A stretch of 57,062 nt of DNA from a virus: the IMG/VR virus record IMGVR_UViG_3300031623_000006, positions 1 through 57,062 of that record, one strand, 5' to 3'. Positions 3,539-54,244 of the stretch are shown here, piece after piece. The notes under the pieces are model-generated. The model searched no databases. It saw nothing but the letters and a program-made list of their open reading frames with translations, and had not been told where the DNA came from. Position 1 is the stretch's first letter; the number at the start of each line of letters is the position of its first letter. The translations under genes were made by a program, and so were the position numbers.

Positions 3539-3712
3539 ATGAAGCACATCGAACCAGATCAAACACTCACAGTTGTGGAAGTTGAGGGACACCACGGAGA
3601 ACGTGGAGTCATCCTCACCGTCACTGTTGAAGACGACGACGGCGACCTCATCACTTTCGACATTGAGGCTCGCGGATTGCCGGGCAGCTATGCGAGCAGT
3701 GACCGCGCCTGA
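3539..3712 (+). CDS. unknown 57-residue acidic protein
   Basis: ATG at 3539 follows GAGAGAGG with good spacing. The product is mostly short beta strands around an EDDDGD acidic turn. No recognised family. An open frame reaches upstream to 3488, but that part falls inside the conserved stem-loop leader and is unlikely to be translated. Confidence 0.6.
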   Translation: MKHIEPDQTLTVVEVEGHHGERGVILTVTVEDDDGDLITFDIEARGLPGSYASSDRA

Positions 3713-3759
3713 AATGCCGCCAGTCTAACCCGTTCCCCCTAACCTTTGAGGCACGACCG

Positions 3760-4005
3760 ATGAACCGACCGACACGAGAAACGCGCCAGACACTGACAGG
3801 CCACCGGCGCGATGACCTTGACTTTGCGATGATGTTATTCAATTCCAATTGGAACTACCGACACGCGGCAACAGCCTATTGGCGCGCGGTTCATCGACAC
3901 TACACCCGCGAAGCGATTACGACCATTCGACGCATCACCGGCCGACGGCGCAAGCGATTGACGTTTCCGGCTATCGACTGGACCGTTTACGAATCATCAA
4001 TTTGA
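3760..4005 (+). CDS. unknown 81-residue basic protein
   Basis: ATG at 3760 follows GAGG at 3748-3751. The product is strongly basic (many Arg, with a GRRRKR run near residue 65) and probably helical, so nucleic-acid binding is possible. No family recognised. Confidence 0.6.
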   Translation: MNRPTRETRQTLTGHRRDDLDFAMMLFNSNWNYRHAATAYWRAVHRHYTREAITTIRRITGRRRKRLTFPAIDWTVYESSI

Positions 4006-6952: not shown

Positions 6953-7183
6953 ATGAAAACAGCGACCACAGAAACGGCAGCCGGCATCTTGGCTCGCAAC
7001 GTCAAGCGACTTCGCCTCTCTCGCGGCTGGTCACAAACGAAGCTGGCGCACAAGATGGCCCGCCCGCAACCGCGAATTTCCGAGATCGAACGCGCTGAGT
7101 TTTGTGTCGGCACGAGCGTGATTGACGCACTGGCTGAAGTGTTTGGCGTGTCTCAGTCATCGCTGCTCAGGAACCATTCTTAG
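6953..7183 (+). CDS. XRE-family helix-turn-helix regulator (likely phage repressor)
   Basis: The 76-residue protein is a single XRE/HTH_3 domain: helices at roughly residues 10-22, 26-33 (SQTKLAHKM), 37-46 (recognition helix, QPRISEIER) and a closing VIDALAEVFGVS. This is the Cro/cI-like DNA-binding fold without a C-terminal dimerisation or protease domain. The ATG at 6953 is chosen because it sits at the predicted transcription start; in-frame GTG codons at 6947 and 6923 overlap the promoter. It lies between two terminators as its own transcription unit, which fits a lysogeny or early-gene repressor. A regulator of the adjacent repeat array is also possible. Confidence 0.8.
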   Translation: MKTATTETAAGILARNVKRLRLSRGWSQTKLAHKMARPQPRISEIERAEFCVGTSVIDALAEVFGVSQSSLLRNHS

Positions 7184-7241: not shown

Positions 7242-7275
7242 CCCTCGTCTGATGTGAATCGGGCGAGGGTTTTTT
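7242..7275 (+). terminator. intrinsic terminator after the repressor
   Basis: CCCTCG (7242-7247) pairs with CGAGGG (7264-7269) and is followed by a run of six T residues. It ends the repressor transcript a few bases before the first unit of the repeat array, so the array should either have its own promoter or rely on readthrough. Confidence 0.75.
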
Positions 7276-7280
7276 ATTGG

Positions 7281-7552
7281 AGTGCCAACCGAGCTTGGGG
7301 ACTGAAACAAGCCCACCGCGTGCCAGCCATTCCATCGGACTGAAACAGGAGTCAAGAGCGCAACCAGACACTCGGCCTGAAACATTGTCCAAGCGTGCAA
7401 CCATCAGTTTGGACTGAAACAACCTAATCGCGTGCAACCACGGTGCTGGACAGAAACACAAGCCGCGAGTGCTAACCAAGCCGGCCGACAGAACCACAAT
7501 ACTTGAGTGAAACCAACGTAGGCGACTGAAACAGAAACACCGCGTGCAAAGG
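7281..7552 (+). repeat. TIGR-like dual-spacer repeat array, upstream part (7 units plus a partial)
   Basis: Two short conserved blocks alternate. Block A is GCGTGCAACCA with variants GAGTGCTAACCA and GCGTGCCAGCCA; block B is GGACTGAAACA with variants. B copies start at 7299, 7337, 7374, 7411, 7448, 7486 and 7523. A copies start at 7281, 7318, 7356, 7393, 7430, 7467 and 7505, and a degenerate A is at 7542. The A-to-B gap is exactly 7 nt and the B-to-A gap exactly 8 nt each time. All gap sequences differ: AGCTTGG/AGCCCACC, TTCCATC/GGAGTCAA, GACACTC/TTGTCCAA, TCAGTTT/ACCTAATC, CGGTGCT/CAAGCCGC, AGCCGGC/CAATACTT, ACGTAGG/GAAACACC. The unit length is 37-38 nt. CTGA in block B recalls box D of C/D RNAs. 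This geometry matches TIGR arrays, whose ~36-nt guides have two spacers, and not CRISPR, whose spacers are longer. Confidence 0.85.
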
Positions 7553-7560
7553 AAACCGAA

Positions 7561-8472
7561 ATGTCAATCACGGCAGAACAAGCAAAAGCAGACGAAGTGA
7601 TTCGCGGCCTTACCGACCCATCAACGTGGGAACAACTCGCACGACTCGACAAAGACCTGAAGGATGCGGCAACCGATCTCGGACGTGTGCAAGCCCGCTA
7701 CCTCACTGACTGCTACTACCAATTGCAAGACTTCCGCATTGCATCCGCGGCTCAAGTTCGATCTGCCGAAGACGAGCCAAACCGCGTGCTTTCTTGGTTT
7801 TTCGCACAGATGCAAGTTCTGGAAAACGACATCAAGCGGGCGTTGAAAGAGTTCTCGTCGTCCTACGCTACCGGGCAATGGATGCAGTCGATCTGCGGCA
7901 TTGGCCCCGTCATCTCCGCTGGCATGTTGGCACAACTCGACATACGCGATTGCAAGACTGTAAGCCGCTGGTGGCGATTTGCCGGTCTCGACCCGACTGT
8001 GAAATGGGAGAAGAAATCCAAGCGACCCTGGAACGCCAAGCTCAAAGTTCTCTGTTGGAAACTCGGGGAATCGTTCATCAAAGTCCAGAACAAAAAAAAC
8101 GATTACTACGGCAAGATATTCCGCACCCGCAAGGACTACGAGATTGATCGCAACGAGAGCGGCGGCAACTCCGAGACGGCCGCACGCATCCTCACCGAGA
8201 AGAATTGGGACAAGACCACCGACGCTTTTAAGCACTACAGCGAGGGCCATTTGCCGCCAGCACAAATCAACGCTCGCGCCCGACGCTACGCCGTGAAGAT
8301 GTTCCTCTCGCATCTGCATCACGCGATGTTCGTCGATATGTACGGCAAGGAACCTCCTGTGCCTTACTCGTTCGAGCAGTTGGAGGGCGACCATCGGCAT
8401 TTCGTTGCGTTGCCGAACTGGCCGTTTGAGAGTAAGGGCGGCAAGCCGCTGTCTGATTTGTATGCGGAGTAA
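7561..8472 (+). CDS. tasA-like: TasA-like stand-alone Nop/Transposase_20-domain protein (TIGR-associated)
   Basis: The 303-residue protein has an N-terminal helical/coiled-coil part (about 1-105), then a helix-hairpin-helix core at 111-145 (GIGPVISAGMLAQLDI...RWWRFAGLDP). A basic stretch (KKSKRPWN) and further helices run to about 260. The core is what is annotated as Transposase_20 in IS110/IS116 transposases, related to the Nop domain of box C/D RNPs. The DEDD RuvC-like catalytic domain of IS110 enzymes is missing, as are any HNH or RuvC nuclease motifs. A Nop-only protein beside a dual-spacer array matches the TasA type of TIGR-Tas systems; RNA binding and guided DNA recognition are inferred. 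The start at 7561 follows AAAGGAAA, which grows out of the last, degenerate A block. The TAA stop lies inside the first block of the downstream array part. An inactive IS110 remnant is less likely, because the array is regular and the frame intact. Confidence 0.8.
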   Translation: MSITAEQAKADEVIRGLTDPSTWEQLARLDKDLKDAATDLGRVQARYLTDCYYQLQDFRIASAAQVRSAEDEPNRVLSWFFAQMQVLENDIKRALKEFSSSYATGQWMQSICGIGPVISAGMLAQLDIRDCKTVSRWWRFAGLDPTVKWEKKSKRPWNAKLKVLCWKLGESFIKVQNKKNDYYGKIFRTRKDYEIDRNESGGNSETAARILTEKNWDKTTDAFKHYSEGHLPPAQINARARRYAVKMFLSHLHHAMFVDMYGKEPPVPYSFEQLEGDHRHFVALPNWPFESKGGKPLSDLYAE

Positions 8473-8572
8473 CAACCAGCGATTGAGACTGAATCATATT
8501 ATCTGCGTGCAACCAAAATTGTGGACAGAAACAAGATAGCCGAGTGCCAACCACGACCCCGGAATGGAAACA
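8467..8572 (+). repeat. TIGR-like array, downstream part (3 units)
   Basis: The same A and B blocks continue after the gene. A blocks are at 8467-8478 (GAGTAACAACCA, overlapping the gene's stop codon), 8505-8515 (GCGTGCAACCA) and 8542-8553. B blocks are at 8486-8496 (AGACTGAATCA), 8523-8533 (GGACAGAAACA) and 8561-8572 (degenerate). Gaps again are exactly 7 nt (GCGATTG, AAATTGT, CGACCCC) and 8 nt (TATTATCT, AGATAGCC). The last B block is the most diverged, as expected at an array end. Confidence 0.85.
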
Positions 8573-8609
8573 CACCGCGATGACAGGAACGCGGCGGGGC
8601 GTGTTTTTT
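8571..8609 (+). terminator. terminator-like hairpin closing the array
   Basis: A GC-rich hairpin with CCGCG (8575-8579) pairing CGCGG (8589-8593), and ACAC able to pair with GTGT further out, is followed by six T residues ending at 8609. It directly follows the last repeat and would end the array/tas transcript before csrA. Confidence 0.6.
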
Positions 8610-8632
8610 AACCATCAACCAAGGGAATGAAT

Positions 8633-8860
8633 ATGTTGGTACTTTCTCGGAGAGCCGGACAGGTAATTTCAATCGGTGACAACATCACAGTTACCGTCAC
8701 CGACATTGGACCGCGTCACGTGAAGCTGGGAATCGTTGCGCCAAACCTGCCGATTGTTCGCGACGACGCAATCAGGCGCAACTACAGACCCGGCTCGATG
8801 CAGACGCCCGCCGATGTTGCGAAGCGAACGCGGGACCAAGACGACTGGATGTCGCCATGA
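8633..8860 (+). CDS. csrA: CsrA-family RNA-binding translational regulator
   Basis: The 75-residue protein begins MLVLSRRAGQ and continues through ISIGDNITVTV and VKLGIVAPNLPIVRDDAI, the five-strand core of CsrA/RsmA. The RNA-contacting N-terminal L-R-R and the Arg of the VRDD turn are present. CsrA dimers bind GGA motifs near ribosome-binding sites. The ATG at 8633 is chosen over 8627 because AAGGGA at 8621-8626 gives correct spacing and the family starts with MLVL. A ~15-residue C-terminal extension is not part of the core. The gene overlaps the following GNAT gene by four bases. Its target could be host or phage leaders, many of which carry GGA near the start. Confidence 0.9.
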   Translation: MLVLSRRAGQVISIGDNITVTVTDIGPRHVKLGIVAPNLPIVRDDAIRRNYRPGSMQTPADVAKRTRDQDDWMSP

Positions 8861-10273: not shown

Positions 10274-10669
10274 ATGCCCAAGCAACTAACATTGCCAACC
10301 ATCCTGCCTGAACGACTGGAGAGGTTCCTGTTGTTCCACCGGGAAAATCCCGATGTCTATTCGATGTTCAGGTTTTTTGCCTTGGAGGCGAAGCGAAGCG
10401 GTGTGTCCCATTACGGTGGCCGAGCAATTGCCGAGAGAATTCGGTGGCACAAAACAGTTGAGAATCGTGTAGGCGAATTCAAATACAACGACCACCTAAC
10501 CGGTTACTACACGCGGCTGTTGATGCTGGTTGAGCCAATGCTGTTTGGGGGTTTCTTTGAAAGAAGAGACGCCCGGTTCGACGCCGATGATGAGACTCTG
10601 CTTTTCCATTTTAGTCAACTGCAAGGTGACACAGACCATGACACTCGAAAACGCAATCAACGCAATTAA
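10274..10669 (+). CDS. conserved phage protein (FHRENPxVY/AERIRWH type), function unknown
   Basis: ATG at 10274 follows GAGGAAG. The 131-residue protein carries FHRENPDVYSMFRFFA, the AIAERIRWHKTVE segment and YYTRLLMLVEPMLFGGFFERR. I know this arrangement from a widespread phage protein found next to recombination nucleases. It is probably DNA-associated, but no activity is established. The 98-bp spacer before it holds nothing I can identify. Its 3' end overlaps the next gene by 32 bases. Confidence 0.75.
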   Translation: MPKQLTLPTILPERLERFLLFHRENPDVYSMFRFFALEAKRSGVSHYGGRAIAERIRWHKTVENRVGEFKYNDHLTGYYTRLLMLVEPMLFGGFFERRDARFDADDETLLFHFSQLQGDTDHDTRKRNQRN

Positions 10670-11744
10670 CGACGCCATGCACGACGTCACCGACGAGATG
10701 CAGTTGCTCGCCGCAACGAAGGTCAAGTCTCTAATGCACGGCTACGACCGGAAGTGGAAGTACGCGGAATGGGCGACGATTTCCTTGGAAGACACCGTTC
10801 ACTTGCCAATCGTAAATCCAGCAACGGGCCGCTCGTCCCGCACCTACACGCAAGCGGGAAAGCATGATGGAATTATCGATGGGTACGGCAAACGACTGCT
10901 GCTCGAACACAAAACAACCAGCGACGACATCGAAGATCCGAACTCGACCTATTGGCGTCGGCTGGATATTGACGCACAGGTCTCGCAGTACATGCTCCAA
11001 AAATGGCAGGGCGGCGACAAACTCGACGGCACATTGTACGACGTGATTCGCAAACCGGGGATTCGTCCCAAAAAAATTGCGAATCGCGACCGGCAAGCAA
11101 TCCTGGCGACTGGCGAGTATTTCGGAATTAAAGTGTCTGAATTGACCATGCGGTCGTTTTCTGTTGGAAATGATCGCGAGAACAATGAGCTTTACTTCAA
11201 TCGCTTGCGTCGGGAAGTCCTCGATAATCCAGCAAAATACTTTCAGAGGAAACCAATCTATCGCATGGATCACGAGGTTGTCGAGTATGCAAGCGAACTG
11301 TGGAACATCGCGAAAACCATCGGCGAAGCATCGCGAGAAGATACGCACTACCGGAACTCAGAAGCGTGCATGACATGGGGTTCTCCATGCGAATACCTGG
11401 GAGTTTGTTCGGGTCACGACACGATCGATTCTGACAAGTGGGAATCAATCGAAACGGTTCACTCCGAACTGGACGGTGAGTTTCCAGACGGCGGGCGCAC
11501 CGTATTGACCTGTTCGCGAATGAAGACGTTTCAAACGTGTAGGCGTAAACACCAATACCGCTACATTCTCGGCAAACGTCGCCGAGATGACGAGGGGCGA
11601 GAAGCCCTGTTCTTAGGCACCATCATGCATCTTGCGTTAGAGGCTTGGTGGGGCCAATTTACGGAGGAAGCCAGCAATGGCGACAGCAGCAACGGGTCCC
11701 CGGCCATCGAGGTCGGCCAACCAAGAGAGTCCGAGATTTCTTGA
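10638..11744 (+). CDS. PD-(D/E)XK nuclease with apparently permuted Fe-S/N-terminal segment
   Basis: The 368-residue protein belongs to the RecB/AddB/Cas4-like PD-(D/E)XK exonucleases. D77 (AGKHDGII), E90-x-K92 (LLLEHKTT) and Q114 form the active site. C244, C251 and C257 are three of the four expected Fe-S cysteines. The segment that normally starts these proteins, SRMKTFQTCRRKHQYRY...FLGTIMHLALEAWW with the fourth cysteine C301 and conserved H331, is here at residues 293-338, after the catalytic core. The order is therefore circularly permuted relative to relatives I know. ATG at 10638 follows AAGGTGA; an open frame extends upstream to 10530 but encodes nothing similar. With the following ATPase it forms a recombination module that would process DNA ends. 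Confidence 0.8.
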   Translation: MTLENAINAINDAMHDVTDEMQLLAATKVKSLMHGYDRKWKYAEWATISLEDTVHLPIVNPATGRSSRTYTQAGKHDGIIDGYGKRLLLEHKTTSDDIEDPNSTYWRRLDIDAQVSQYMLQKWQGGDKLDGTLYDVIRKPGIRPKKIANRDRQAILATGEYFGIKVSELTMRSFSVGNDRENNELYFNRLRREVLDNPAKYFQRKPIYRMDHEVVEYASELWNIAKTIGEASREDTHYRNSEACMTWGSPCEYLGVCSGHDTIDSDKWESIETVHSELDGEFPDGGRTVLTCSRMKTFQTCRRKHQYRYILGKRRRDDEGREALFLGTIMHLALEAWWGQFTEEASNGDSSNGSPAIEVGQPRESEIS

Positions 11745-12531
11745 TCGTGTCAGTAGCAAAGGTTCTGGTTTGCCGAGCCGCGTGTGCATGCACGCTGTTG
11801 AAAAGTTTGGCAAAACGTCGTTCGCCGCTCATGCGCCGGGCGTGATCTTTGGCATGACGAAAGGTGAGACAGGATTAGAGTCACTCATTGACTCGAATCA
11901 GTTGCCAGCGGTGCCCCACTTCCCAACGTGGGAAACACACGCCGATATGATGCAGTCAATTGAGGAATTAACCACCCAGGACCACAACTACAAGACCCTC
12001 GCAATTGACACCCTGAACGGGGCTGCCGCGCTGGTGTGTGACCACGTCTGCCAGCGTGAATACAACGGCGACTGGGGACAGAAAGGATTTACCGGCTACA
12101 TGCGAGGCTATGAAGTCGCGACGACCGACTGGCGAGAATTGCTCGTGGCATTAGATCGTCTGCGATCTGAACGCAAGATGGGAATCATTTGTTTGGTGCA
12201 CACGAAGGTCAAGACCTTCAAGTCACCCGACACTGAAGATTACGACCGCTATCAGCCAGACATGCACGACAAGCTGTGGGGTCTGTCTCACAAATGGTTT
12301 GACGTGATTATGTTCGGTAATTTCTATACGGAAGTTGTCGAAACCGGCGCGAAGAGCAAAGGTAAAGGTGGACAGAATCGAGTGCTATATACCGAGCGTC
12401 ATGCTGCCTATGACGCAGGGAATCGCCTGGGACTCCCCGAGGAAATTGAGATGGGGTCGTCTGGGGCAGAAGCGTGGGACAATTTCAAAGCAGCAGTCAC
12501 TGAAGCACGAACCACGAAAGGCGGTGAATGA
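11677..12531 (+). CDS. Sak4-like / AAA_24 RecA-fold ATPase (recombination)
   Basis: The 284-residue protein has a RecA-type P-loop at residues 39-49 (AVEKFGKTSF; the first glycine is replaced, as is often seen in this phage family). A Walker B-like strand LAIDTLNG is near 105, and CLVHTKVK is the sensor strand. This is the arrangement of phage AAA_24/Sak4 proteins, single-strand annealing or Rad51-like recombinases. ATG at 11677 has GGAGG upstream and overlaps the nuclease gene by 68 bases in another frame. Neighbouring nuclease and SSB-like genes support the role. Confidence 0.75.
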   Translation: MATAATGPRPSRSANQESPRFLDRVSSKGSGLPSRVCMHAVEKFGKTSFAAHAPGVIFGMTKGETGLESLIDSNQLPAVPHFPTWETHADMMQSIEELTTQDHNYKTLAIDTLNGAAALVCDHVCQREYNGDWGQKGFTGYMRGYEVATTDWRELLVALDRLRSERKMGIICLVHTKVKTFKSPDTEDYDRYQPDMHDKLWGLSHKWFDVIMFGNFYTEVVETGAKSKGKGGQNRVLYTERHAAYDAGNRLGLPEEIEMGSSGAEAWDNFKAAVTEARTTKGGE

Positions 12532-23602: not shown

Positions 23603-25270
23603 ATGCTGATAATCAGGCAAAACGCAACGCACAAAGTGGTCATCGGGCCGGTGGTGGCCGTCGGCGATGGCTTCACGCCAGTGACCACGCTTGACGAAGG
23701 TACGGCTGACGAAGCGGAAGCCATCCTGCACAACAACGGCACCGTCGTTGATATTTCCGGCGTTGGCTATCCGCTCGTGGCGATAACGACAGCCGATGGA
23801 TACTACCACCTGACGTTGGCAACGGGGATTACCAGCACCGTCGGTCACCTGACTGTGATTTACAACGACGACTCGCTGTGCCTGCCTGTCAGGGCTGACT
23901 TCACTGTGGTTGAGGAAGCGGTCTACGACAAGACATACAAGGCAGCGGCAACAGGTGTCGATGCGGACTGGACTCCACTTGGACGCTTGGACGTTTTGCT
24001 TGACGCTATCCCAACGACTGCCATGCGAGGCACGGACTCGGGAGCGTTGGCATCTGTTGCAACTGAGGCGAGGCTGGCTGAACTGGACGCCGCAAATCTC
24101 CCCACCGATGTTGCCGCTATCCCAACGACCGCAATGCGTGGAACTGATTCCGCCCTGACCGACAAGGCAGGCTTCTCGCTCTCGACGGCTGGGATTCTCG
24201 CGGTGTGGCATCAGGCGTTGACTGCGGTTGTGACGGCTGGAACGGTGGGCAAGCTGTTGAAAGATGAGATCACAGCCGCGAGGATGGCGGTGCTAACCGA
24301 CTGGATTGACGCTGGGCGATTGGACGCTCTGCTTGACGCTATCCCGACAACGGCGATGCGAGGCACAGACTCGGCAGCGTTGGCGAGTGTTGCCACAGAG
24401 GCGAGATTGGCGGAACTCGATGCTGCAAATCTTCCGACCGACATTGCAGCGATCCCGACGACCGCAATGCGCGGAACAGATTCAGCCGCGTTGGCATCTG
24501 TTGCGACCGAGGCGAGATTGGCTGAATTAGACGCAGCTAATATCCCAGCGGACATTGCAGCAATACCAACGACGGCCATGCGAGGTACAGACTCGGCCAA
24601 CACAACAACCCCGCCCACGGTCAACGCCATCGTCGATCAAGTGTGGGATGAAGCACAGGCCGACCACGTTGCGGTTGGCAGCTTCGGCGTAACCGCCAGT
24701 GAAATTGCAGCAATACCAACGACGGCCATGCGAGGCACAGACTCGGCGGCACTTGCTTCCGTTGCAACTGAGGCTCGCCTTGCCGAGTTGGATGCTGCAA
24801 ATCTCCCCACCGACATTGCAGCGATTCCGACGACAGCGATGAGGGGAACGGATTCGGCGGCACTCGCTTCCGTTGCAACTGAGGCTCGGCTTGCCGAGTT
24901 GGATGCTGCGAACCTTCCGACTGATATTGCAGCTATTCCGACGACAGCGATGAGGGGAACGGACAACGTGGTTCTGGCCGGTCCAACAAAAGCAGAGATG
25001 GATACGGCGCACGCGCTGCTTGCAACCCCCGCACAGGTTAACACTCAGGTCGTCGATGTGCTGCGAACCGACACGGCAGCCGAACTGTCCGCCGTTCCCG
25101 CAGCAAGCCCCGCGCTGCACACGATGATTCAGCTTCTCTACATGGCGCTAAGAAACAAAGTGGACGTGACTGCGAACAACAAGGAAGTCCATGTCGATGC
25201 TGGGACAGTCCTTGGAACGAAAACTCTTTCCGATGATGCCACAACCTACTCTGAAACGAAGATGGCATAA
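23603..25270 (+). CDS. repeat-containing tail fibre-like protein
   Basis: The 555-residue protein has an N-terminal beta domain (about 1-115). A long stretch of tandem repeats follows, with eight copies of AIPTTAMRGTDS/N and five of LASVATEARLAELDAAN. A C-terminal helix and a short trimer-like end complete it. Such repeats form elongated, probably trimeric, coiled or beta-spiral shafts in phage fibres. The start at 23603 follows AGGTCATAACCG. The repeat DNA is much less conserved than the protein. A minus-strand HNH gene sits directly after the stop. Confidence 0.7.
   Translation: MLIIRQNATHKVVIGPVVAVGDGFTPVTTLDEGTADEAEAILHNNGTVVDISGVGYPLVAITTADGYYHLTLATGITSTVGHLTVIYNDDSLCLPVRADFTVVEEAVYDKTYKAAATGVDADWTPLGRLDVLLDAIPTTAMRGTDSGALASVATEARLAELDAANLPTDVAAIPTTAMRGTDSALTDKAGFSLSTAGILAVWHQALTAVVTAGTVGKLLKDEITAARMAVLTDWIDAGRLDALLDAIPTTAMRGTDSAALASVATEARLAELDAANLPTDIAAIPTTAMRGTDSAALASVATEARLAELDAANIPADIAAIPTTAMRGTDSANTTTPPTVNAIVDQVWDEAQADHVAVGSFGVTASEIAAIPTTAMRGTDSAALASVATEARLAELDAANLPTDIAAIPTTAMRGTDSAALASVATEARLAELDAANLPTDIAAIPTTAMRGTDNVVLAGPTKAEMDTAHALLATPAQVNTQVVDVLRTDTAAELSAVPAASPALHTMIQLLYMALRNKVDVTANNKEVHVDAGTVLGTKTLSDDATTYSETKMA
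23999..24963 (+). repeat. tandem coding repeats of the fibre shaft
   Basis: Units of roughly 33-36 codons encode near-identical protein segments. Third-codon positions vary widely: the IPTTAMRGTDS segment is written with different synonymous codons in most copies, although the last copies are more alike. One 40-residue insertion (NTTTPPTVNAIVDQVWDEAQ) interrupts the series near 24600-24700. Confidence 0.75.
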
Positions 25271-51469: not shown

Positions 51470-54244
51470 TTACGCTGCTGTTCCCGGACCACAATAGACC
51501 GTGAACTCATCCTGCTCTTCTTTCTCGTTGACTTCATCATCGTACCACTTATCGAACCGCTGGGAAGCCGCTAAACCCTTCCCACCCAAGACATTCGTCA
51601 AGTCCGGCATCTTGTACGTTGGGTGGCGTGAAGCCCAATATTCGAGACAGTTCCCTGCAACCAGCGGACTGCCGTTTCTCCTGACAACCAACGTACCGTT
51701 CGGTACGGTAGCACAATACACCATTCCATCATATTGTTTTTCGTGGTGGTTTGGCTCTCCGCTGTGCCTGTGCAGGCCAGCGCGGGGGTGTTCCAGTTCT
51801 GACACAATGTATTGTCGCCTCGACATTCCGCTTCTGCCCTTGATGTTCCACGGCTCTGGTTCTTTCTCTTTGATGCTAGCTGATATTCCGAGTTTCAAAT
51901 ACAACTCCTGAATATCGTCAGCCAGCCCCAAGCACGCCGTGCTGCTTCTACGTCGTGTTCCGTTTTCAATCCACCCGTCACCCATTAAGTAACCAGCAAT
52001 GAATCGCCGGATTATCCTTGGCGAAGCCCATTTAACCCAGTCGGGGACACGCTTAGTGTAGACGTTTCCAATTGGATTGACGTGATGCCACAACTGCTTA
52101 CTGGAGCATGAGTAGCCTTGTGGGTATCTTGTCCACTTCCACGGCATCGAATCGAGCAAAGGCTCCAGCACTGGCTTGAATTTTGTCTTTGTCTGAGAAA
52201 TCTGAACTCGATACCCATTCCCAGGGCACCGTGGATTGGAGTCTGAGCACCCTTCAGCAACATACCACCCAATGAATTCAGCAAAATCACCTGCGTCCAT
52301 ATCAAATTCTCCGCCCCTGGAGCGGGGTGGCTTGGGGACTAAATGAACATCGTAGTCCTTCCCGTCCCCGTATATACCTGCGTGCATTTTCAGTCTGTCA
52401 TGTCGCCGCATGTCCGTAGCTCGCAACATCACGGGCGATTCGTCTTCAAATCTTGGGTAAACTACCATTCGGTGATCTGGGGTTACCATTGCATTCAGCT
52501 TGTGGCCGCCAAATTCAATCATCTCACCGCTGAATCGCTTCGCAATCAAACCAGTTGGGCTTTGGTACTCCATCCGATTTGACTTCAGGTTCGATGTCGC
52601 CAGCTTATCGGACATCACCACATCCCTAAACGGCTTCCACCCACTGTCGGTCAGTGCTTCTGTTTTCTCATCAAAACAAACTCTCACGTCATCGCGCTGA
52701 CCGGTTGCCGCCTTCTCTTCGACAATCGTGATGCCCTCTGGACCCGTAACTGTCTTCTTCAGGTTGTTCTCAATCTGCCACACAAGATTCGGACAACGCT
52801 TCGTGACAATCCGCAACTGGGGGCATCCGCTCGGGCGGTAGGACATCATCGTTTCAACCAATCCCTTGCGGGCCGCGAAGTCTGGATCACCGGGAATGAA
52901 GTTCGACTGCGTTTCTTGGCACAGAATTCCCAACCTCTGAAACTCTTTCGAGTAGTTCGCGCCAACCGTTCCACTGAAGCCCATCGGTGTCTGACGTGAC
53001 GCCTGTCCGTCGATGATGAACCGCTGGAACTGATACCCACCCGCCTTGGCTTTCACGGCTTTAGCGATTCCACGAGCATCGAGTCGGGGAATGTAGATTT
53101 CTGCATACGGCACATAGCTTGGCTCGTGTCCTTCCCAGAATTCCGGGGGAGGCACAGCACAAAACAGAACTGCCGGCTTGGCTGTACCTGGATCGAGAAT
53201 CAGTTCACGAGTCCAGTCTGCCGGCGGCTCACCGTTTCGTTCTCGTAGAACCTTGCTGATTGCGTCGTCTTGGTCGGGGTTCTCGTAAATCGCTCTGTGA
53301 ATCGCACGGTCAAACGTCGGGTAAATCTTAATCGTGTCTGTCAGGAACTCGCCTTCGTCACGCATGCGACGGTCATCGTCGCTCCAGCCGTCAAGACGCT
53401 TACGCTTTTCGTCGTCGTCGATGTGTGGGTTGGCACTGAATCGCAACGTCAACTCATCGCAATCAGCCGACTCACGCTCGCCACGTTGAACTTCCTCAGC
53501 CTGTTCCTGCGCACGGTGACTCAATCGAATCATCGCACCATTGTCGGCACGAGGCATCGTTGACCAGACAATCCTGCCCTTCGTGTCAGACAGCCGAGCT
53601 TGCCATTCCGCGTAGTGACCGGGAATCGAAATGCGTTCGTCAACCCAGATATAGTCAACAGGGTCGCCCTGCTTCACTTCGCCCGTCGAAGCCCATGCCT
53701 TGATGACCGTTCCGTTCTTCATCGGGATGTGGCTGAACTGTCGCTCTTTCTTGTTCTCCCAACCAATGCCGTCCATTCCGCCTTCAACTTCACTCAGTGG
53801 AATGAGGGGAAACGATGGCCTGCAGTCCAGCTCTCTGCCGGCATCTATCGCCGGGTCGAACGCTCGCCACGGACCCGAACCGTCCGGCTGGTCTCGGAGA
53901 ATCCTGTAGAGACCCCGCTTGAACAGAACTCGCCATATTGTGTCGCCGATGTGGTCCCACTGTAATCCCACAACCCAAGCAAGCAAGGGACGCTTCAACT
54001 GCCACGGGAGTCGCTGCTCAATTGGGTTGCCGTCCTTGTCGTGAATCGGCTTCCCGCGAACCACAGCGGCAAACTTCGCTGCTGCACTGATTGTCTTGCC
54101 GGCACGGTTTCCGCCGCGAAGCAAAAACTCACTGCACTGAGACTGAAAGAACGGAAGCTGCGTCGGAAACGCGCGGAACATCCCCAGTCCGTCGTTACGA
54201 CGACGAGCCAGTTCTACCGCATTGCGAATCTGACGATCACTCAT
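51470..54244 (-). CDS. terL: terminase large subunit interrupted by an intein
   Basis: Of 924 residues, 523-865 are an intein; the joined extein is about 581 residues, a normal TerL size. The ATPase has a Walker A-like LLRGGNRAGKT (41-51) and a Walker B VDYIWVDE (196-203). The nuclease domain includes ELILDPGTAKPAVL (D351) and FIIDG (D412), acidic positions expected for the RNase H-like metal site. TerL packages and cuts concatemeric DNA at the portal. The intein splits RDDVRV from CLEYWASRH. The gene overlaps the upstream gene by four bases. Confidence 0.88.
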   Translation of the reverse strand: MSDRQIRNAVELARRRNDGLGMFRAFPTQLPFFQSQCSEFLLRGGNRAGKTISAAAKFAAVVRGKPIHDKDGNPIEQRLPWQLKRPLLAWVVGLQWDHIGDTIWRVLFKRGLYRILRDQPDGSGPWRAFDPAIDAGRELDCRPSFPLIPLSEVEGGMDGIGWENKKERQFSHIPMKNGTVIKAWASTGEVKQGDPVDYIWVDERISIPGHYAEWQARLSDTKGRIVWSTMPRADNGAMIRLSHRAQEQAEEVQRGERESADCDELTLRFSANPHIDDDEKRKRLDGWSDDDRRMRDEGEFLTDTIKIYPTFDRAIHRAIYENPDQDDAISKVLRERNGEPPADWTRELILDPGTAKPAVLFCAVPPPEFWEGHEPSYVPYAEIYIPRLDARGIAKAVKAKAGGYQFQRFIIDGQASRQTPMGFSGTVGANYSKEFQRLGILCQETQSNFIPGDPDFAARKGLVETMMSYRPSGCPQLRIVTKRCPNLVWQIENNLKKTVTGPEGITIVEEKAATGQRDDVRVCFDEKTEALTDSGWKPFRDVVMSDKLATSNLKSNRMEYQSPTGLIAKRFSGEMIEFGGHKLNAMVTPDHRMVVYPRFEDESPVMLRATDMRRHDRLKMHAGIYGDGKDYDVHLVPKPPRSRGGEFDMDAGDFAEFIGWYVAEGCSDSNPRCPGNGYRVQISQTKTKFKPVLEPLLDSMPWKWTRYPQGYSCSSKQLWHHVNPIGNVYTKRVPDWVKWASPRIIRRFIAGYLMGDGWIENGTRRRSSTACLGLADDIQELYLKLGISASIKEKEPEPWNIKGRSGMSRRQYIVSELEHPRAGLHRHSGEPNHHEKQYDGMVYCATVPNGTLVVRRNGSPLVAGNCLEYWASRHPTYKMPDLTNVLGGKGLAASQRFDKWYDDEVNEKEEQDEFTVYCGPGTAA
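51650..52678 (-). mobile_element. intein with LAGLIDADG endonuclease in terL
   Basis: The 343-residue insertion starts at C523 (CFDEKTEALTDSGWKPFRDV, block A) with TPDHR in block B. It carries two LAGLIDADG-like helices (FAEFIGWYVAEG at 654-665 and FIAGYLMGDGW at 748-758). It ends with VYCATVPNGTLVVRRNGSPLVAGN, then C as the +1 extein residue. The last Asn and Cys+1 are present. The penultimate residue is Gly where His is usual, a known but less common variant. Both endonuclease helices carry their acidic residue, so homing activity is plausible. Confidence 0.85.

What the first reader, a model, noticed from the sequence alone, without database searches (positions are those of the whole stretch)
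7281..8609. Phage-borne TIGR-Tas-like locus: Nop/Transposase_20 protein inside a dual-spacer repeat array
Seen: a regular array of two alternating conserved 11-12-nt blocks with all-different 7-nt and 8-nt gaps, ten full units in total, beside a 303-residue protein that keeps the helix-hairpin-helix Transposase_20/Nop core but lacks the IS110 DEDD domain and any HNH or RuvC nuclease. Known: TIGR-Tas systems combine tandem dual-spacer guide RNAs of ~36 nt with Nop-domain proteins, the nuclease-less type being TasA. Inferred: this locus makes many short dual-guide RNAs that direct the protein to DNA, possibly for silencing or competition with other phages.
Basis: partly seen in the sequence, partly recalled or inferred. 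Interest (0 to 1): 0.95.

Follow-up and report, generated by a model that had tools for sequence, protein, structure and literature searches.

The report
Phage TIGR-TasA dual-guide RNA locus
A temperate phage carries a nuclease-less member of the recently described TIGR-Tas family, an RNA-guided DNA-binding protein with its own array of paired 8-letter guides; the locus is genuine, and a cultured bacterium with a related prophage gives a first, still unproven hint that such guides may be aimed at other mobile elements in the same cell.

Summary
The finding holds up. The 303-aa protein at 7561-8472 matches the NCBIfam TIGR-Tas model at 179 bits (cut-off 100) and IS110 at 21 (cut-off 140). Its AlphaFold model matches only TasR and TasH in the PDB at E<=0.001, and no nuclease domain is seen, so it is TasA type. 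The flanking array is real: period 37, 0.53 self-identity against 0.35 +/- 0.02 in shuffles. It has seven units upstream and two complete plus one partial downstream, with 8+8-nt spacers; the first downstream edge repeat overlaps the tas stop codon.

A search found 463 relatives in IMG/VR. At least 94 of 106 close tas loci examined have parsed arrays, against 0 of 17 IS110-like controls. In related phages, spacers are co-inherited across the loop repeat (median 0.80) rather than the edge repeat (0.40): the inherited unit is the guide pair, as the dual-guide model predicts.

No target was found for the window's own guides. In the cultured acidobacterium KBS 96, one of six guide pairs of a TasA prophage matches 16/16 an early gene of a 10.15-kb satellite-like element in the same genome (about 0.06 expected by chance): a lead, not proof. 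Verdict: new member of a known kind; function inferred.

The parts
7280..7552 (+). Upstream TIGR array: seven edge-A-loop-B units, 37-38 nt spacing; final edge repeat truncated just before the tas start
   Evidence: Sequence and repeat search; periodicity above 500 shuffles
7561..8472 (+). tasA: 303-aa Nop/Transposase_20-type protein without nuclease domain
   Evidence: NCBIfam NF052498 179 bits, cut-off 100; phrog_4285 6.5e-43; PDB 9mty_A 6e-12 by sequence; fold match to TasR/TasH
8467..8589 (+). Downstream TIGR array: edge overlapping the tas stop codon (8467-8478), two complete units, one partial last unit
   Evidence: Sequence and repeat search
8566..8608 (+). Weak terminator-like hairpin with T run closing the array
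   Evidence: Fold -14 kcal/mol, z -1.5, not significant on its own; the T run is visible in the sequence
7242..7269 (+). Strong intrinsic terminator 11 nt before the first edge repeat; probably ends the upstream transcript or acts as an attenuator of the array
   Evidence: 12-bp stem plus T6; -22 kcal/mol, z -4.0

Best explanation
This is a TIGR-TasA locus of a temperate tailed phage. Shown: a Tas-family protein without nuclease, embedded in a dual-repeat, dual-spacer array, in a family where guide pairs are inherited as units. Inferred from TasR, TasH and TasA biochemistry: the array is transcribed through the gene and cut by a host RNase into about 37-nt tigRNAs, each with two 8-nt spacers; a TasA dimer holds one tigRNA, and the spacers pair with opposite strands of about 16 bp of DNA, unwinding and bending it without cutting. 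Inferred, less sure: bound TasA blocks transcription or replication of rival mobile elements, such as other temperate phages or satellites. Membership is about 0.97 likely, guide-directed DNA binding about 0.85, and silencing of rival mobile elements as the main role about 0.5.
For: Family model above cut-off. Best sequence and structure matches are TasR and TasH. Array above chance. Arrays beside tas in at least 94 of 106 close relatives and in 0 of 17 IS110-like controls. Shared spacers keep their slot, 574 same slot versus 25 swapped, and are co-inherited across the loop more than across the edge, 29 of 30 related phage pairs, p about 3e-6. The KBS 96 TasA prophage has a guide pair identical to a site 25-40 nt into an early gene of a 10.15-kb satellite-like element, plus a 14/16 match 0.9 kb away. 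Published: TasA binds 36-nt tigRNAs; tandem spacers target both DNA strands (PMC12045711).
Against: No RNA or binding data for this locus. No target of the window's own guides in its own genome; its host is unknown. The KBS 96 match is one event with chance expectation of about 0.06, and the search was not pre-planned as a test of satellites. Halomonas NO4 gave 0 exact matches for 7 guide pairs in 57% of its genome. Three Propionivibrio guide pairs gave none. Two conserved guide pairs matched the viral collection only at chance level. All guide pairs against DNA around tas loci showed no excess over control geometries.
Confidence: 0.75

Rival explanations
1. TIGR-TasA serves the phage itself: it marks or bends sites in phage or host DNA to help integration, replication or regulation, as suggested in the TIGR paper (DNA bend like that used by integrases, ParB partners).
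For: tas lies in the early replication/recombination region in the window (RecB-like exonuclease and Sak4 at 10530-12531) and in KBS 96. PMC12045711 raises integrase help and reports ParB-linked TasA.
Against: No guide pair matches the window's own genome above mispaired controls. Guides turn over quickly between related phages, which fits moving targets better than fixed own sites.
Confidence: 0.2
2. TasA silences host chromosomal genes during lysogeny or infection (phage-encoded gene regulation).
For: A nuclease-less RNA-guided binder would suit repression; the window also carries a CsrA-like regulator next door (8627-8860).
Against: Exact matches in two lysogen genomes: none in the 2.29 Mb of Halomonas searched; in KBS 96 the only exact match is in a mobile element. 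CsrA recurs beside tas only in one other phage population.
Confidence: 0.2
3. A decayed IS110-type transposase with unrelated tandem repeats.
For: Transposase_20 core detectable; PHROGs names the family 'transposase'.
Against: IS110 model 21 bits versus cut-off 140, Tas model 179 versus 100; no DEDD domain; open frame conserved across diverse phages, nearly always near arrays; IS110-like controls lack arrays.
Confidence: 0.02

Closest known systems
TIGR-TasA, dual-repeat type (Faure et al. 2025, PMC12045711)
   Same: Solo Nop-type protein, alternating edge and loop repeats of about 10 nt, paired spacers, arrays up- and downstream of tas, mobile-element location.
   Different: Units of 37-38 nt instead of 36, 8-nt spacers (FpTasA 9), edge repeat 11-12 nt, repeats more variable within the array, downstream edge overlaps the stop codon. 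RNA and DNA binding untested.
TIGR-TasH (Salicola phage CGphi29) and TasR
   Same: Same Nop fold by Foldseek and phmmer; SpTasH also uses 16 nt of total spacer.
   Different: No HNH or RuvC domain here.
TasA of Microcystis phage Mvi-JY20 (PP438412)
   Same: NF052498 at 193 bits with a nine-unit array directly downstream, not annotated in the record.
   Different: 26% identical; repeats ATGCGAGCC/ACGAAACCC.
IS110-family RNA-guided recombinases (IS621, ISCro4)
   Same: Shared Nop/Transposase_20 domain; next-best fold matches.
   Different: No DEDD domain, no bridge RNA, guide array instead.

Membership tests
TIGR-Tas | Tas-family Nop-domain protein | tested here: met
   NF052498 179 bits, cut-off 100; fold matches TasR and TasH
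TIGR-Tas | Array of two alternating short repeats with paired spacers, adjacent to tas | tested here: met
   same arrangement in relatives
TIGR-Tas | Similar terminal motifs in edge and loop repeats (box C / box D) | tested here: met
   Both repeats end in CCA or ACA and carry TG (AG in some loops); equal 11-nt distance between the motifs in both halves of the unit (read from the units)
TIGR-Tas | Array processed into about 36-nt tigRNAs bound by Tas | not testable with these tools
   Needs small-RNA sequencing or pull-down
TIGR-Tas | Tandem-spacer targeting of both DNA strands | tested here: inconclusive
   No target for this locus; guide-pair co-inheritance in the family and one exact match in KBS 96 are consistent with it
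TIGR-TasA subtype | No nuclease domain | tested here: met
   All-helical model; no nuclease family in Pfam, PHROGs or NCBIfam scans
IS110 transposase | N-terminal DEDD domain and family score | tested here: not met
   21 bits versus cut-off 140; no such domain in the model
CRISPR array | One repeat of about 25-36 nt with spacers of similar length | tested here: not met
   Two alternating blocks of 10-12 nt with 8-nt spacers

The most novel reading that the evidence does not exclude
Phage TIGR-TasA is a non-cleaving, RNA-guided weapon against rival integrative elements, including phage satellites, and phages exchange complete guide pairs as cassettes. In KBS 96 a TasA prophage guide matches 16/16 the start of an early HTH gene of a satellite-like element inserted at a tRNA-Glu gene of the same genome.
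Probability: 0.3. Interest if true: 0.9.

Novelty: new member of a known kind. Interest (0 to 1): 0.6.

Why it matters
The natural targets and the role of nuclease-less TasA are stated as open in the paper that described the family. This window adds a divergent phage member. The comparison set built from it shows that the guide pair is the unit of inheritance, and it yields one concrete, testable natural target candidate in a bacterium sequenced as an isolate.

Tried and rejected
Single-protein scans of viral contigs and genome contigs found nothing; an alignment with the Microcystis phage protein was needed. The repeat-pattern scan gave three chance hits without arrays. CsrA as a conserved partner was rejected: it is beside tas only here and in one other phage population.

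Target searches without a positive result: own genome; all guide pairs against about 0.9 Mb around tas loci; two guide pairs conserved in related phages against viral contigs, 35 and 34 hits with no shared target; Halomonas NO4; Propionivibrio. The apparent enrichment of CACTGGTAN{0,2}GTTAYTTC spreads over many unrelated genes and low-complexity TG(x)VTS-type motifs, so it was rejected as a target.

One search followed up those contigs and is likewise uninformative about targets. The window's own guides were therefore not searched in the viral collection; at a background of about 35 chance hits per guide pair that search would have been weak anyway.

Full report
Observation. The window is a whole 57,062-bp IMG/VR record. 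It has a tyrosine integrase, a Sak4-like annealing protein, a RecB-like exonuclease, RusA and a weakly matched major head protein, so it is a temperate tailed phage. The repeats at 7280-7552 and 8467-8589 and the ORF at 7561-8472 are as described. Self-identity at period 37 is 0.533 against 0.353 +/- 0.019 in 500 dinucleotide shuffles.

Anatomy. The unit is edge G[C/A]GTGC(N)AACCA, spacer A 8 nt, loop GAC[T/A]GAAACA, spacer B 8 nt. The 8+8 reading follows from relatives, whose consensus is 10+8+10+8, for example GAGCGAGCCA/GAGAGAACCA. Seven units lie upstream of tas and two plus a degenerate third lie downstream, all on the coding strand. The first downstream edge, GAGTAACAACCA, contains the tas stop codon. 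Spacing of 37-38 nt excludes a coding repeat. A strong terminator lies 11 nt before the first edge, so the array is either started downstream of it or reached by read-through; this is unresolved.

Protein. NCBIfam NF052498 (TIGR-Tas) scores 179 bits (cut-off 100) and IS110 21 bits (cut-off 140). By sequence the best PDB chains are 9mty_A (TasR, E 6e-12) and 21kl_A (TasH, E 5e-6). The AlphaFold model (pLDDT 84, pTM 0.81) is helical. All ten Foldseek hits at E<=0.001 are TasR or TasH, followed by ISCro4 and IS621 at weaker E-values. TM-scores are moderate (about 0.5), as can happen when a monomer model is compared with RNA- and DNA-bound dimers. No nuclease domain is found.

Relatives. An alignment with the Mvi-JY20 protein found 12 and then 463 viral relatives and 32 genome hits, of which 13 lie in genomes with NF052498 over cut-off. 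Of 106 close tas loci, 94 have at least four automatically parsed units (median 19.5, maximum 67). L016 and L020 also have arrays on direct inspection of the repeat listings or sequence. None of 17 IS110-like loci does.

Evolution of arrays. Phages 80-97% identical share part of their spacers. Whole units are gained, lost, duplicated and occasionally shared between groups. Shared 8-mers keep the same slot (574) far more often than they swap (25). A shared spacer's partner across the loop is also shared in a median 0.80 of cases, and its neighbour across the edge in 0.40; 29 of 30 unequal phage pairs favour the loop (Wilcoxon p about 3e-6; phage pairs are not fully independent). This is what selection or exchange of edge-A-loop-B units, that is tigRNAs, would give. 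I know of no earlier report of it, but only the held papers were searched.

Targets. Following the published C-5 rule and 8-nt 3' overhangs (PMC12045711), I derive the target as A + 0-2 nt + revcomp(B). The window's guides do not match its own genome above mispaired controls. In Acidobacteriaceae KBS 96, guide pair TAAAAGCA/TTCGATTC of the TasA prophage (about 43 kb, tRNA-Phe side) matches exactly, gap 0, at C1:6329962-6329977. The other five pairs have no exact match. Expected exact matches for six pairs over the genome are 0.064 by a Markov model, and about 0.09 from the rate of unrelated guides in Halomonas DNA (15 hits for about 2,960 pairs in 2.29 Mb). The site is 25-40 nt into an HTH_17 gene of a 10,153-bp element bounded by 26-bp repeats at tRNA-Glu. 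That element carries an integrase, a repressor, two HTH_17 proteins, a replication-like gene, a small terminase, an S78 prohead protease and a capsid gene. No large terminase, portal or tail gene was recognised, which resembles capsid-encoding phage satellites. A second guide pair (CTCCAGGT/ACTTACAA) matches 14/16 in the same operon, 0.9 kb away; about 0.08 such near matches are expected in the element by chance (own arithmetic). I treat this as a lead: one genome, examined after the fact, with negative or uninformative results elsewhere.

Conclusion. The locus is a genuine TIGR-TasA member. How it works at the molecular level is inferred from its family. Its role is most likely interference with rival mobile elements without cleavage, supported by one candidate target in a relative and open to direct test.

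Noticed in passing
L199 (KBS 96, G002:C1:6322000-6338000), 7963-7979 and 7053-7068: Exact 16/16 and 14/16 matches of two guide pairs of the KBS 96 TasA prophage within one early operon of a 10.15-kb satellite-like element.
   Followed up: partly
L063/L064/L065/L069, L087/L094/L100/L104/L106, L082/L097/L109/L116/L123 and others: Related phages share TIGR units as cassettes, with duplications, losses and occasional exchange between groups; guide pairs stay together across the loop repeat.
   Followed up: partly
L024 (Ca. Propionivibrio aalborgensis): Two guide pairs differ by a single base (GAAATAAC/CACTGGTA and GAAGTAAC/CACTGGTA), as if tracking target variants or after duplication.
   Followed up: partly
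L002, Microcystis phage Mvi-JY20 (PP438412), 3612-3932: Unannotated nine-unit TIGR array directly downstream of a TasA annotated as hypothetical protein.
   Followed up: partly
window 7242-7269: Strong intrinsic terminator 11 nt before the array; possible attenuation of array transcription.
   Followed up: partly
window 8627-8860: CsrA-like gene directly after the array; also just upstream of tas in L052/L053. The loop repeats contain GGA, the core of CsrA-binding sites, but most relatives lack both.
   Followed up: partly
window 7299-8571: In 8 of 9 units the loop variant (CTG or CAG) goes with the next edge variant (GCGTG or GAGTG); weak statistics, cause unknown.
   Followed up: no
window 51470-54244 (minus): Terminase-like protein that seems to carry an intein with a LAGLIDADG domain.
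   Followed up: no
L006 3370-3517: The tas frame runs into its array, giving a C-terminal RSAKPxxxRAP peptide repeat.
   Followed up: no
window 24341-24964: 111-bp coding tandem repeats in a putative structural protein (23603-25270).
   Followed up: no
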